Below are positions 8,406 through 11,213 of a DNA stretch of 64,000 nucleotides, one piece after another. The stretch's first letter is position 1. Each line of letters opens with the position of its first letter. The DNA comes from Enterococcus hirae ATCC 9790 (GTDB taxonomy: Bacteria > Bacillota > Bacilli > Lactobacillales > Enterococcaceae). A program made the translations under genes and the position numbers. The notes beneath the pieces were generated by a model. That model was not told the DNA's origin and ran no database searches. It worked only from the letters and a program-made list of their open reading frames with translations. The stretch spans positions 1,453,501 through 1,517,500 of the forward strand of contig NC_018081.1 of the NCBI RefSeq assembly GCF_000271405.2. Direction: 5' to 3'.

Positions 8406-8420
8406 TCAACTCAGAAACCA

Positions 8421-8460
8421 AAGAAGCAACCTTCCCATCCCAGAAGGTTGCTTCTTTTGC
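8421..8460. terminator. Terminator between folT and the convergent operon
   Basis: Arms AAGAAGCAACCTTC / GAAGGTTGCTTCTT with an 8-nt loop, followed by TTGC TTATTT on the plus strand. It probably also serves the convergent minus-strand operon. Confidence 0.85.
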
Positions 8461-8491: not shown

Positions 8492-8743
8492 CTATAAAAT
8501 AGTGAACAACGATTGAAAGAGATGATATATGGCCATACCACCTAGAATACTACTGATGATGGTCAAAAGGATTGTGACACTTTTAGAGGGCTTTGTTAAT
8601 GAAAGATAGTAATAGGCAAGCCCAATTTGAAGATTGAAGTAGAAAATAGCACTTCCAGATCTAAAATTAGGGAAAAGTGTCATAATAATATTTATACACA
8701 GTGATATCTTTAACAATTCTTTGTACCAATTCTTTTTAGCCAT
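8492..8743 (-). CDS. Small membrane protein, candidate bacteriocin immunity protein
   Basis: The 83-residue product has three predicted membrane helices (about residues 10-25, 33-50 and 57-80) and a basic start (MAKKNWYKELLK). It is the last gene of a three-gene minus-strand operon. Its ATG lies inside the end of the thioredoxin-like gene, giving an 8-nt overlap (ATGGCTAA), so the two are translationally coupled. A small hydrophobic protein at the end of a bacteriocin-like operon is typical of dedicated immunity, but I recognise no family. Confidence 0.7.
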   Translation of the reverse strand: MAKKNWYKELLKISLCINIIMTLFPNFRSGSAIFYFNLQIGLAYYYLSLTKPSKSVTILLTIISSILGGMAIYHLFQSLFTIL

Positions 8744-9173
8744 TTAGGATAAACTCCTCGATTGCTTTTTCATTTTTTAGGCCAATTATTCGATCAATAA
8801 CTTTTCCATCCACAATTTTTATTATGGCCGGGATAGAATTAATTCCTAAGCTGTCAGCCATTATTTCCAACTTATCCTCATTCTCTTTACGAGCGTGATC
8901 TGTATTATAATATCCCATAGATTGGTGCTGGTTGTTTAGTACTTTTCGCAAAATAGGCTCAAATTCTTTACATTGGGGGCATGTAGGTCTCCCTACATAA
9001 ACAAATAAAGTATCCTTTCCATTCATTATTTTTTCTAAAGAAATACTATCCACTTCATATAAACCCTCTTTAGATGTTGCCATTTGAGTATAGACATATA
9101 AAATAGTAGGTAAACTACAAATAATTAAAATGAAACACATCAATTTTTTTGGATTAATATTTATCATAAACAC
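8736..9173 (-). CDS. Membrane-anchored thioredoxin-like protein (bacteriocin accessory type)
   Basis: The 145-residue product has an N-terminal membrane anchor (about residues 10-30) and an extracellular thioredoxin fold with the redox motif CPQC at 65-68 in FVYVGRPTCPQCKEF. A cis-proline-like segment, INSIPAIIKI, follows. The context YVGRPTCPxCxxFEP closely resembles the PedC/BrcD "bacteriocin transport accessory" family, small thioredoxin-like proteins that help form disulfides in class IIa bacteriocins. The gene lies between a Cys-rich secreted precursor and a putative immunity gene, so its client is probably that precursor. The start is either the GTG at 9173 or the ATG at 9167; neither has a good ribosome site, which suggests coupling to the gene before it. 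Confidence 0.85.
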   Translation of the reverse strand: MFMININPKKLMCFILIICSLPTILYVYTQMATSKEGLYEVDSISLEKIMNGKDTLFVYVGRPTCPQCKEFEPILRKVLNNQHQSMGYYNTDHARKENEDKLEIMADSLGINSIPAIIKIVDGKVIDRIIGLKNEKAIEEFILNG

Positions 9174-9180
9174 AACCAGT

Positions 9181-10023
9181 TTATAATTTAAAACATGCGA
9201 CTACTCCACCGATGGCACCACCAGCAAGAGCGACAAAACCTGTTATACAAGCAGCACATACTAATGGAACTGCAAGACAAGCAGCAGCACATGTAGGGGC
9301 AATGATGTTAGCAACTGCACGGCTTATTCCTAAAACAATTGCTAGACAGGCTGCTTTTTCAGCCATTCCACGGGCTTGCTTCAAATGAAGAAACTCCCTT
9401 TGAACTTCTTGTAACTGTTTTTTCAATTCATTATTTGGTATAAATTTATCTTCAAGAATTTGGTGAGTCATTTCTTCGCCATTGGAAAATGTTCTAATCT
9501 CGAAAGTATCTTTTTCTGATTGAGTGATCAAAGATTCTTGGACTCCCTTAATGTTGTACATCATATCAAAGATTACCGTAACACTGCTGAATAGATTATA
9601 GTGTTCATTTGTGATTGGTACAGTCAATGAATAATAATCTTTATTTTCTCCATTTTCACTTATAATTTGTAACGCTGTAGCATTGTCCAATGTTAAATAT
9701 TTTTCTGAAACATGTAATTGAATAGTAGAGTCAAGTTTAGATGAAAATACGTCCATTAGTTTGTTTTTTTCTTTCGAGCTAATTTCTTTTGCTGTTTCAG
9801 ACAAAATGACCATATTTTTAACGATTGATGTAGCTTCTTTCGAATTTATACCAGGAACCGTCACTGGATTACTTTCAAAATAGGTACTAATCGTTTGTGT
9901 CATTGGCACATAGTCAGTCTCTTGAATCATCTCTGCATTGACAATCATAGAAAAGTTAGGAATGATAAAGGAAGCTAGAGTTATAACAGCAATAAGACTT
10001 ATAATGAATTTGTTTTTTAACAT
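9181..10023 (-). CDS. Secreted precursor with cysteine-rich hydrophobic C-terminus, candidate novel bacteriocin
   Basis: No named family is certain. The 280-residue product has a signal peptide (1-30, cut after VNA), a polar domain (about 31-215) and a last 65 residues that change completely: Ala/Gly/Val-rich, hydrophobic, with all six cysteines of the protein (226, 245, 249, 256, 259, 277). The segment CAAACLAVPLVCAACITGF, then a GGAIGG glycine patch, looks like a cysteine-rich hydrophobic peptide of the halocin C8-like or circular/sactipeptide-like kind carried at the end of a large propeptide. The next genes encode a CPQC redox protein and a small membrane protein, and a divergent Rgg regulator faces it. 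Together this suggests a Sec-exported, disulfide-stabilised antimicrobial peptide released by proteolysis. The function is inferred. Confidence 0.8.
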   Translation of the reverse strand: MLKNKFIISLIAVITLASFIIPNFSMIVNAEMIQETDYVPMTQTISTYFESNPVTVPGINSKEATSIVKNMVILSETAKEISSKEKNKLMDVFSSKLDSTIQLHVSEKYLTLDNATALQIISENGENKDYYSLTVPITNEHYNLFSSVTVIFDMMYNIKGVQESLITQSEKDTFEIRTFSNGEEMTHQILEDKFIPNNELKKQLQEVQREFLHLKQARGMAEKAACLAIVLGISRAVANIIAPTCAAACLAVPLVCAACITGFVALAGGAIGGVVACFKL

Positions 10024-10147
10024 ATTTTTTTAATTCCTTTCGATGATCCAGTTTAAGTAAAAAATAGTTACTCTTAGTCGTGTGAATTCTTACATAACAT
10101 TTCTTTTTTGTACTTTGCAGTAAAAATAAGCACTTTATAACAATTTA

Positions 10148-10183
10148 GTGAATAAAACATAATCACCAAATAACTATATTCAC
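10148..10183. promoter_or_regulatory. Dyad in the divergent promoter region, possible Rgg operator
   Basis: GTGAATA (10148-10154) and TATTCAC (10177-10183) form a spaced inverted repeat in the 299-base gap between the bacteriocin-like operon and its Rgg regulator. The rest of the gap is AT-rich with no gene. Assignment to Rgg is inference. Confidence 0.35.
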
Positions 10184-10322
10184 AAATCTCCTGATATTTT
10201 CTCCTTTACTATTATTTAAAGCGCTTTTATTACTTGTATCCATAGTATAGAATGAAAACGAGTAAATTATTTTATATGGTATCAATAGTCACATTGAATT
10301 TAAAAAAGGAAGTGAACGACGA

Positions 10323-11213
10323 ATGGAAATTCATGAATTACTACGTAAATTTCGAAAGGAAAGGGGGTTATCTCAAAAAGAGTTAGCACATAAAATAACT
10401 TCTAGAGAATCTTTAGTAAAATACGAAAGTGGTAAAAATCAGATTCCATTGATTCCTTTATTAGCTTTTTTAAAAAAGATGAACATTGAGTTAGACGAAT
10501 GTTTATTTTATTTAAATAAAATAAACGGAAATCATCCAAGACAAAAGTTAAATCAGCTACTTAGTCAATTGGAAGATGTCCAGTTACCAATTGACGACCG
10601 ATTAAGAAATTTAGAATTAGATATCAAAAAAACAAAAAGCATTGTTGATAAGCGGAATTATCTAATAGCTAAAGGCTATCAATGGCATTTACTACCGAAT
10701 GATGAAAGAAAGTTTACCCTACATGATAAGGTTTATATCAAAGCGATCATGAACCATCTAGAAAAAGTAGCAGAATATGGTCGTTTTGAAATAGTCACAT
10801 TTACTTCACTGGCTTTTCTTTTTACAACAGAATTTATTCAAATGCAAGCTTCGAAAGTAGAAAGAATGGGTGATAACGAAAATTTTCTCTCTTCACTTTG
10901 CACGTTGTATCATGTTCTCTTTCTTTTAATGCTAGAAAGAAAAGAAAGCGGCTATTCAAAAGAATATCTAGAAAAATTAAAGATGGTTCGAGGTAGACTA
11001 GTGACACCACAAAAAACAGAGGTACACGAAAGGTTTGACGATTTGCTACTGAATAGCTTGGTCGAGCGTACAGCTAATCCTAAGCAATTAACAGATTTTT
11101 TTATGGGGATTAGGTTAATTGGTGCAACTCAACTTGAAGAGGAGTTTCTTTTAGCTTTAAAAAAATATGAGAGACTTTATGGTCTTTCTCTTTTACCTTC
11201 AATTATAGAATAA
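10323..11213 (+). CDS. Rgg/GadR/MutR-type transcriptional regulator
   Basis: The 296-residue product has an N-terminal XRE helix-turn-helix (residues 5-60, with SQKELAHKITSRESLVKYES) followed by a long helical C-terminal domain. This is the size and layout of Rgg regulators, whose C-terminal repeat domain often binds short peptide pheromones. It is divergent from the Cys-rich bacteriocin-like operon with 299 bases between, so it probably controls that operon. I found no convincing SHP-type peptide gene next to it. The ribosome site AAAGGAAG stands ahead of the ATG. A second, distinct Rgg homologue is at 24737-25609. Confidence 0.88.
   Translation: MEIHELLRKFRKERGLSQKELAHKITSRESLVKYESGKNQIPLIPLLAFLKKMNIELDECLFYLNKINGNHPRQKLNQLLSQLEDVQLPIDDRLRNLELDIKKTKSIVDKRNYLIAKGYQWHLLPNDERKFTLHDKVYIKAIMNHLEKVAEYGRFEIVTFTSLAFLFTTEFIQMQASKVERMGDNENFLSSLCTLYHVLFLLMLERKESGYSKEYLEKLKMVRGRLVTPQKTEVHERFDDLLLNSLVERTANPKQLTDFFMGIRLIGATQLEEEFLLALKKYERLYGLSLLPSIIE

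What the first reader, a model, noticed from the sequence alone, without database searches (positions are those of the whole stretch)
8492..11213. Candidate undescribed Rgg-controlled, disulfide-bonded bacteriocin system
Seen: a 280-residue secreted precursor has all six cysteines in its last 55 residues, in an Ala/Gly/Val-rich hydrophobic segment. The next gene encodes a membrane-anchored thioredoxin-like protein with CPQC in a PedC/BrcD-like context, then comes a coupled three-helix protein, and an Rgg-type regulator faces the operon. Known: PedC-like proteins form bacteriocin disulfides, small membrane proteins give immunity, and Rgg proteins often answer to peptide pheromones. Inference: the C-terminal segment is cut from a large propeptide to give a halocin C8-like hydrophobic antimicrobial with up to three disulfides. 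No ABC peptidase exporter is present, so export would be Sec-dependent.
Basis: partly seen in the sequence, partly recalled or inferred. Interest (0 to 1): 0.82.

Follow-up and report, generated by a model that had tools for sequence, protein, structure and literature searches.

The report
Sec-exported six-cysteine bacteriocin precursor operon
An Enterococcus-type operon encodes a large secreted protein whose oily, six-cysteine tail is probably cut off and disulfide-bonded to act as an antibacterial peptide; it belongs to an unannotated family found in many Gram-positive bacteria, distantly related to predicted bacteriocins and so far untested.

Summary
In detail: a 280-residue Sec-type precursor with all six Cys in its last 55 residues, a membrane-anchored CPQC thioredoxin-like protein, an overlapping 83-residue membrane protein and a divergent Rgg-like regulator. 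The precursor has no significant match in Pfam, NCBIfam, PHROGs or PADLOC, but relatives in Enterococcaceae, other Bacillota and Actinomycetota. The tail is its best-conserved part; 37 of 38 aligned members keep all six Cys. Profile comparison links it to a Bacillus/Streptomyces family (E 7e-20) and to NCBI's 'putative immunity/bacteriocin fusion' family TIGR04450 (E 7e-8), far above shuffled controls; no halocin C8 link was detected. Outside enterococcal-type loci a small two-segment membrane gene follows the precursor in 9 of 10 loci; enterococcal-type loci carry the thioredoxin-like gene (12 of 12). Six of eight Rgg-linked loci have a short Trp-containing ORF with a perfect ribosome-binding match, a candidate pheromone; the window's is weak. 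Best reading: a proteolytically released, disulfide-bonded hydrophobic bacteriocin, a new variant of the predicted Gpos_C8-like kind. Activity, cleavage and disulfides are untested.

The parts
9181..10023 (-). Precursor (280 aa): signal peptide ~1-30, pro-region ~31-218, Cys-rich hydrophobic tail ~219-280
9181..9369 (-). Predicted mature peptide G219-L280 (62 aa, six Cys, 5861 Da reduced / 5855 Da with three disulfides) plus stop codon; the cleavage site is inferred
   Evidence: R218 in 25 and G219 in 26 of 38 aligned members; mass
8736..9173 (-). Membrane-anchored thioredoxin-like protein with CPQC (145 aa)
   Evidence: Pfam Thioredoxin passes its cut-off; TIGR01295 PedC_BrcD E 1.6e-12, below cut-off
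8492..8743 (-). 83-aa hydrophobic protein, candidate immunity protein, overlaps the thioredoxin-like gene by 8 bp
   Evidence: homologues in L011, L024, L025, L026
10323..11213 (+). Divergent Rgg-like regulator (296 aa)
   Evidence: HTH_3 passes; Rgg_C 23.1 bits, below the 27-bit cut-off; counterparts in L011 and L027 pass Rgg_C
10163..10183 (-). Weak candidate pheromone ORF (GTG start, MNIVIW, 5 of 6 Shine-Dalgarno match) at the place where other loci carry a clearer short Trp-containing ORF
8420..8457 (.). Terminator-like stem-loop (found on the + strand) between the operon and the convergent gene
   Evidence: 2 terminator-like sites in the stretch against 1.1 in shuffles

Best explanation
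The operon makes a Sec-exported bacteriocin. The 280-aa precursor leaves through Sec (signal peptide to about residue 30). Its soluble pro-region keeps the hydrophobic tail inert and may chaperone it. The membrane-anchored CPQC protein forms or reshuffles disulfides among the six tail Cys outside the membrane. A protease, probably cutting near R218-G219, releases a ~62-residue hydrophobic peptide that damages the membrane of related cells. The 83-aa membrane protein and/or the pro-region protects the producer. The divergent Rgg-like protein switches the operon on at high density, probably with a short peptide encoded between the two genes. Shown: gene content, signal-like N-terminus, conservation, homology to a predicted bacteriocin family, co-occurrence with a redox protein or a small membrane protein. 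Inferred: cleavage, disulfides, killing, immunity, pheromone.
For: Homology of pro-region and tail to a Bacillus/Streptomyces family (hhalign prob 99.2, E 6.8e-20) and to TIGR04450-type 'putative immunity/bacteriocin fusion' proteins (prob 94.5, E 7.4e-8); scores 136.3 and 57.7 against maxima of 25.6 and 25.7 in 60 column shuffles each. Tail best conserved (0.66 versus 0.49 for the pro-core); tail identity exceeds pro-region identity in 7 of 8 gene pairs, tail dN/dS 0.07-0.42 with dS near saturation in most pairs. Six Cys in 37 of 38 rows. Thioredoxin-like gene in 12 of 12 enterococcal-type loci, two of them with broken precursors; plasmid relatives of it lie beside a Blp-family bacteriocin (L069), a leucocin A-type bacteriocin (L071) and a family-B precursor (L054). 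In L051 a family-B precursor is followed by a 65-aa protein with two hydrophobic segments and a four-segment CPTC/CWLC protein. Small gene with two hydrophobic segments right after the precursor in 8 of 10 loci L014-L023 by script, 9 with L018 read directly, versus 5 of 274 background ORFs. Proteases beside the operon in L015 (trypsin-like) and L030 (C47). No C39 exporter in the genome. GC 28-34% over precursor and regulator versus 35-40% around.
Against: TIGR04450 itself is a prediction, and I found no experiment on it. None of 27 scanned members matches TIGR04450 or TIGR04449 at E <= 1, and the tail Cys spacing differs from TIGR04450. The second family does not itself align well with the four TIGR04450-type sequences (prob 7.6). 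No halocin C8 homology. The 83-aa family is absent or unrecognised in 5 of 10 enterococcal-type loci with unbroken precursors. The RG pair is absent in 5 of 5 actinobacterial rows. The thioredoxin-like protein is also about 40% identical over 61% of its length to a Listeria thioredoxin-family protein lying among housekeeping genes. No thioredoxin-like gene in 10 of 10 loci L014-L023, so it is not essential to the family. A strongly conserved tail is unusual for a diversifying toxin.
Confidence: 0.7

Rival explanations
1. The secreted protein is a surface or biofilm component or a self-assembling hydrophobic peptide (chaplin/SapB-like in behaviour, recalled): the tail inserts into the envelope or an interface and is not toxic.
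For: Strong tail conservation under purifying selection; homologous family in many Streptomyces; no constant immunity partner in enterococcal-type loci.
Against: Profile link to predicted bacteriocin fusions; two loci with a broken precursor but an open thioredoxin-like gene; redox and small membrane partners; pheromone-type regulators.
Confidence: 0.13
2. The tail acts as a sibling-killing (cannibalism) or signalling factor under Rgg control, like the SDP toxin of Bacillus (recalled), not as an interspecies bacteriocin.
For: Large Sec precursor with a hydrophobic C-terminal region and a small membrane partner, the general SDP plan (recalled); Rgg-type regulation.
Against: No match named for SdpC in Pfam or NCBIfam; six Cys and a redox partner.
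Confidence: 0.12
3. True member of the halocin C8 family carried over into bacteria.
For: Similar layout: ~300-aa precursor, Cys-rich hydrophobic C-terminus, and in two of three loci read a 68-aa hydrophobic gene next (L047, L048). Halocin C8 and TIGR04450-type pro-regions show a weak, uncontrolled hint of similarity (prob 40.6, E 2.9e-4).
Against: TIGR04449 finds nothing in the genome or in 27 members; hhalign score 17.2 equals the shuffled median 18.0, with only three halocin sequences in that profile; the second family does not align with halocin either (prob 0.2).
Confidence: 0.05

Closest known systems
TIGR04450 Gpos_C8_like, 'putative immunity/bacteriocin fusion bifunctional protein' (L066 and L067 on Staphylococcus aureus plasmids, L068 Rossellomorea)
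   Same: Signal-like N-terminus, pro-region, hydrophobic six-Cys C-terminus, a 64-aa (two hydrophobic segments) or 68-aa small hydrophobic gene beside it; detectable profile homology
   Different: Tail spacing C-x7-C-x3-C-x13-C-x3-C-x7-C against C-x18-C-x3-C-x6-C-x2-C-x17-C here; no thioredoxin-like gene in L066 or L068; our family does not reach the model at E <= 1
Halocin C8 (TIGR04449)
   Same: Precursor of about 300 aa with Cys-rich hydrophobic C-terminal part; in L047 and L048 a 68-aa hydrophobic gene next, of which my scan passes one segment. PMC12893001 (passages) states that HalC8 releases an active C-terminal fragment and that its protease is unidentified
   Different: No sequence homology detected; ten Cys in the mature peptide as I recalled it; archaeal, with an RR-bearing N-terminus in P0041 and P0043; in L046 the next gene is a 230-aa protein
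PedC/BrcD bacteriocin disulfide proteins (TIGR01295)
   Same: Thioredoxin-like, CxxC, beside a secreted Cys-containing peptide gene
   Different: 47.5 bits against a cut-off of 120; sits beside a Sec precursor, not a double-glycine class II peptide
Rgg with short peptide pheromones (SHP/ComS) of streptococci (recalled; search listing)
   Same: HTH plus Rgg_C in L011 and L027; short ORF between the regulator and its presumed target operon
   Different: The short ORFs differ between lineages and share only Trp; no activity tested; L026 has a GHKL kinase and a LytTR regulator instead of Rgg

Membership tests
TIGR04450 Gpos_C8_like | Score over the curated cut-off of 27 bits | tested here: not met
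   0 of 27 family members matched at E <= 1; no match in the own genome
TIGR04450 Gpos_C8_like | Homology detectable by profile comparison | tested here: met
   hhalign prob 94.5, E 7.4e-8, score 57.7 versus shuffled maximum 25.7; only 4 sequences of that type, one of them a fragment (L061) and one (L063, 24.6 bits) below the family cut-off
TIGR04450 Gpos_C8_like | Cys spacing of the tail | tested here: not met
   Different spacing
TIGR04450 Gpos_C8_like | Bacteriocin activity | not testable with these tools
   No experiment seen; paper searches 48 and 102 each listed one paper, on a halocin name only (neither read), and search 64 none
Halocin C8 (TIGR04449) | Match to the halocin C8 domain model | tested here: not met
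Halocin C8 (TIGR04449) | Large precursor with C-terminal Cys-rich peptide and a small membrane gene in the operon | tested here: met
   in the window the thioredoxin-like gene lies between the two
PedC/BrcD (TIGR01295) | Score over the cut-off of 120 bits | tested here: not met
   47.5 bits
PedC/BrcD (TIGR01295) | CxxC thioredoxin-like protein encoded beside a secreted peptide with several Cys | tested here: met
Rgg regulators | N-terminal HTH and Rgg_C domain over Pfam cut-offs | tested here: inconclusive
   HTH_3 met; Rgg_C 23.1 of 27 bits in the window; met in L011 and L027, not in L024
Double-glycine class II bacteriocins | C39 peptidase exporter in the genome | tested here: not met
   No PF03412 match in the own genome; the control rings in 8 of 14 genomes
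SDP (SdpC) cannibalism toxin | Match to an SdpC-type family model | tested here: inconclusive
   No match named for SdpC in Pfam or NCBIfam; whether such a model is in these libraries was not checked

The most novel reading that the evidence does not exclude
A pan-Gram-positive superfamily of proteolytically activated, disulfide-bonded hydrophobic toxins, spanning Enterococcus, Clostridia, Bacillales, Actinomycetota and the Staphylococcus Gpos_C8 proteins, in which the pro-region is both chaperone and part of the immunity. Different lineages recruited different redox partners (a membrane thioredoxin in enterococci, a four-segment CxxC membrane protein in L051) and proteases, and enterococci added an Rgg circuit whose pheromone is a Trp-containing short peptide encoded between regulator and toxin.
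Probability: 0.35. Interest if true: 0.8.

Novelty: new variant of a known kind. Interest (0 to 1): 0.62.

Why it matters
If right, it gives a testable, unannotated antimicrobial family in genera of animal, human and soil habitats (habitats recalled), with a predicted mature peptide, a redox partner and a candidate pheromone switch. It would also bring NCBI's prediction of 'immunity/bacteriocin fusion' proteins, matched in 475 plasmid records of which 470 are Staphylococcus, within reach of a test, and ask whether halocin C8-type maturation exists in bacteria.

Tried and rejected
Halocin C8 homology: sought with TIGR04449, hhalign and shuffles and not found. Location on plasmids or phages: tblastn of the precursor gave no match in either collection, and a viral contig scan gave 13 pattern hits but no relative. 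TIGR04450 in 398 genomes of the phylum: none, with no control ringing; in 348 of the class: 5 with E <= 0.001, 2 over the cut-off. Of those five loci I used L061 and L063 in an alignment and looked at L062; L064 and L065 lie among cell-division, ribosomal and other housekeeping genes and look like chance. A tblastn of L063 in plasmids found nothing. A scan for shared upstream words found mainly words within close pairs; the longest set, shared by L011, L027, L028 and L030, lies next to the start of rgg. E20c, a 6.5 kDa bacteriocin of E. hirae 20c (PMC7197179, passages), is near the predicted mass, but its fingerprint was matched to an E. faecalis hypothetical protein; a lead only.

Caveats: the short-ORF criterion was defined after seeing the sequences. 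hhalign E-values are for single comparisons, hence the shuffles. The 38-row alignment holds 22 of the 40 proteins and 16 locus translations; fragments and near duplicates were left out before that count (the Cys pattern in all 40 is). The second-family alignment holds 18 of the 26 proteins plus L051 and L055; in all 26, 24 meet the six-Cys pattern. Protein searches scored only the ~8000 candidates sharing most words. Several loci are duplicates or close pairs (L012=L024, L013=L025, L015 and L016; L027/L030; L029/L031).
Full report
WHAT IS THERE. On the minus strand lie a 280-aa precursor (9181-10023), a 145-aa thioredoxin-like protein with CPQC (8736-9173) and an 83-aa hydrophobic protein (8492-8743) that overlaps it by 8 bp; a 296-aa HTH/Rgg-like gene faces them (10323-11213). 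All six precursor Cys lie in the last 55 residues (chance 4.6e-5). The N-terminus reads as a Sec signal ending near VNA30-E31 (by eye). GC in 1-kb windows is 28-34% over precursor, thioredoxin-like gene and regulator against 35-40% around them, which suggests an acquired islet. A terminator-like stem-loop follows the operon.

FAMILY. The precursor has no significant match in Pfam, NCBIfam, PHROGs or PADLOC (the best is GvpU at E 0.076, 13.3 of 70 bits). Protein searches found 10 and, with a profile, 40 proteins; those with names are labelled Enterococcus, Streptococcaceae, Streptococcus suis, Hathewaya and Amygdalobacter. Genome searches found it in 9 of 15 genomes of the genus (two broken), 11 of 105 of the family and 3 of 398 of the phylum, of which one is the own genome, one a remnant (G258) and one marginal (G178, the start of the second family). 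A contig scan gave 13 loci of 39 pattern hits, among them Caldalkalibacillus, Corynebacterium, Oribacterium, Serinibacter, Nocardiopsis, Baia, Nanchangia, Thermoactinomyces and Cutibacterium. In the 38-row alignment 37 rows keep all six Cys (P0010 lacks one), and the mean majority-residue frequency is 0.66 in the tail, 0.49 in the pro-core, 0.35 in the linker, 0.27 in the pro-N part and 0.37 in the signal. Of all 40 proteins, 37 meet the spacing pattern; P0010 misses one Cys, and P0029 and P0040 end before the tail. In 7 of 8 gene pairs the tail is more identical than the pro-region; the exception is the closest pair (0.92 versus 0.94). Tail dN/dS ranges from 0.07 to 0.42, with dS near saturation in most pairs. 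An R at 218 (25 of 38) and a G at 219 (26 of 38) just before the tail mark a likely cut, giving 62 residues, 5861 Da reduced; the RG pair is absent in the five actinobacterial rows.

RELATION TO KNOWN KINDS. A marginal hit (L051) led to a second family in Bacillus and Streptomyces (26 proteins) with the same Cys order and close spacing (24 of 26 fit). hhalign of the two gives probability 99.2 and E 6.8e-20 over 198 columns covering pro-region and tail. Seven of 20 members of that family weakly match TIGR04450, best E 0.045. Against four TIGR04450-type sequences our family scores probability 94.5, E 7.4e-8, though the second family itself does not align well with them (prob 7.6). Controls: real scores 136.3 and 57.7 against maxima of 25.6 and 25.7 in 60 column shuffles each; reversed alignments 22.2 and 23.6. 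Halocin C8: 17.2 against a shuffled median of 18.0 and no TIGR04449 match; only three halocin sequences were in that profile, so power is low. Halocin against TIGR04450-type gives a weak hint in the pro-region (prob 40.6, E 2.9e-4, no shuffles run), halocin against the second family nothing. Two of the three halocin loci read have a 68-aa hydrophobic gene right after the precursor; my scan passes one hydrophobic segment in it; the third, L046, has a 230-aa gene there.

OPERON PARTNERS. The thioredoxin-like gene is present in 12 of 12 enterococcal-type loci (window, L011, L024-L031, L049, L050), including L030 and L031 where the precursor is broken, and in 0 of 10 loci L014-L023; in L050 it lies about 0.8 kb further on, beyond a partly masked frame. 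Searching it in plasmids gave 8 records. Of the six in lactic acid bacteria or Brevibacillus, L. reuteri has it beside a Blp bacteriocin, L. carnosum beside a leucocin A-type bacteriocin (one of its two records read), L. brevis beside a family-B precursor annotated in two pieces, W. hellenica beside an ABC transporter; the Brevibacillus stretch shows no annotated bacteriocin. The other two are Listeria records; the one read (L073) has it among housekeeping genes. L051 carries a family-B precursor, a 65-aa gene with two hydrophobic segments and a four-segment protein with CPTC and CWLC, read by eye as DsbB/VKOR-like; Pfam gives no name. Directly after the precursor, a 45-115-aa gene with two hydrophobic segments occurs in 8 of 10 loci L014-L023 by script; L018 was added by direct reading, and L017 has a 54-aa candidate one base beyond my limit. 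Background: 5 of 274. In enterococcal-type loci the 83-aa family is seen in 5 of 10 loci with an unbroken precursor, a different 53-54-aa single-segment protein in 2, and none was recognised in 3, one of them partly masked. Proteases adjoin the operon in Corynebacterium (trypsin-like, tested in L015; L016 is near-identical) and in L030 (C47).

REGULATION. Rgg-like frames face the operon in 6 of 10 enterococcal-type loci with an unbroken precursor (window, L011, L024, L027, L028, L029; the frame in L028 is interrupted near its start) and in both broken ones (short in L031). L026 has a GHKL kinase and a LytTR regulator instead; L049 has another HTH gene (by eye). Between regulator and precursor, a short ORF (5-30 codons) with a perfect 6-base Shine-Dalgarno match and at least one Trp occurs in 6 of 11 regions (L011, L024, L026, L027, L029, L031; a 31-codon one in L030, outside the limit); with a 5-of-6 match also in L028 and the window (MNIVIW, very short). 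L025 has one without Trp and L049 none. Dinucleotide shuffles give 0-4% per region (ten regions, 5 of 10 real hits there). Of 74 other intergenic upstream regions, 4 have a perfect-match short ORF and none of these has Trp; at the looser setting 38 have one and 5 with Trp. Seven further regions scanned later added only L012, a duplicate of L024, and a looser one in L017. The criterion was chosen after seeing the sequences, and the six hits come from five lineages.

MECHANISM. Best reading: Sec export, extracellular disulfide formation helped by the CPQC protein, proteolytic release near R218-G219, membrane attack by the hydrophobic peptide, self-protection by the small membrane protein and/or pro-region, and density control by the Rgg-like protein. 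Everything after gene content, conservation and homology is inference.

LITERATURE. Searches in the held open-access library (listings seen only) showed no title or abstract describing this family or TIGR04450 proteins; most subscription journals are not held. One search listed one paper that holds 'halocin_C8_dom' (PMC8651086, on PAAR proteins) and search 48 one that holds 'halocin C8-like' (PMC10694973); neither was read. [quoted passage not shown] PMC7197179 was seen in passages. The roles of PedC, SHP/ComS and SDP systems are recalled.

VERDICT. A real, conserved, unannotated bacteriocin-like operon; a new variant of a predicted kind. Interest 0.62 because the kind was foreseen by NCBI's models and nothing is proven, yet its breadth, redox partner and candidate pheromone make it directly testable.

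Noticed in passing
L011, L024, L026, L027, L028, L029, L030, L031; window 10163-10183(-): Short Trp-containing ORF with a strong or fair ribosome-binding match between regulator and precursor, candidate pheromone.
   Followed up: partly
L025 4307-6534(+): Beside the six-Cys locus of Enterococcus sp. 10A9_DIV0425: a second secreted-looking 276-aa protein with a Cys-free hydrophobic, lysine-bearing C-terminal part, a duplicated 137-aa membrane protein and a 111-aa paralogue of the 83-aa protein; no NCBIfam or Pfam match for the 276-aa protein.
   Followed up: no
L066, L067 and the records: TIGR04450-type proteins match 475 plasmid records, 470 of them Staphylococcus; in both stretches read a divergent 64-aa ORF lies beside the gene, two hydrophobic segments by scan.
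   Followed up: partly
L051 6606-7985(-): Family-B precursor, 65-aa two-segment gene and four-segment CPTC/CWLC protein in a row, a different possible disulfide partner for the same kind of precursor.
   Followed up: partly
L015 1071-2062(+); L030 7236-7949(-): A trypsin-like and a staphopain-like (C47) protease beside the operon, candidate maturation proteases.
   Followed up: no
L030, L031, L052, L054, L061; L028 regulator: Broken or remnant copies: internal stops in the precursors of L030 and L031 with an open thioredoxin-like gene; a pro-region remnant in L052; precursors in two separate reading pieces in L054 and L061; an interrupted regulator frame in L028.
   Followed up: partly
L026 9496-11524(-): GHKL histidine kinase and LytTR response regulator upstream of the operon where other loci have Rgg.
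   Followed up: no
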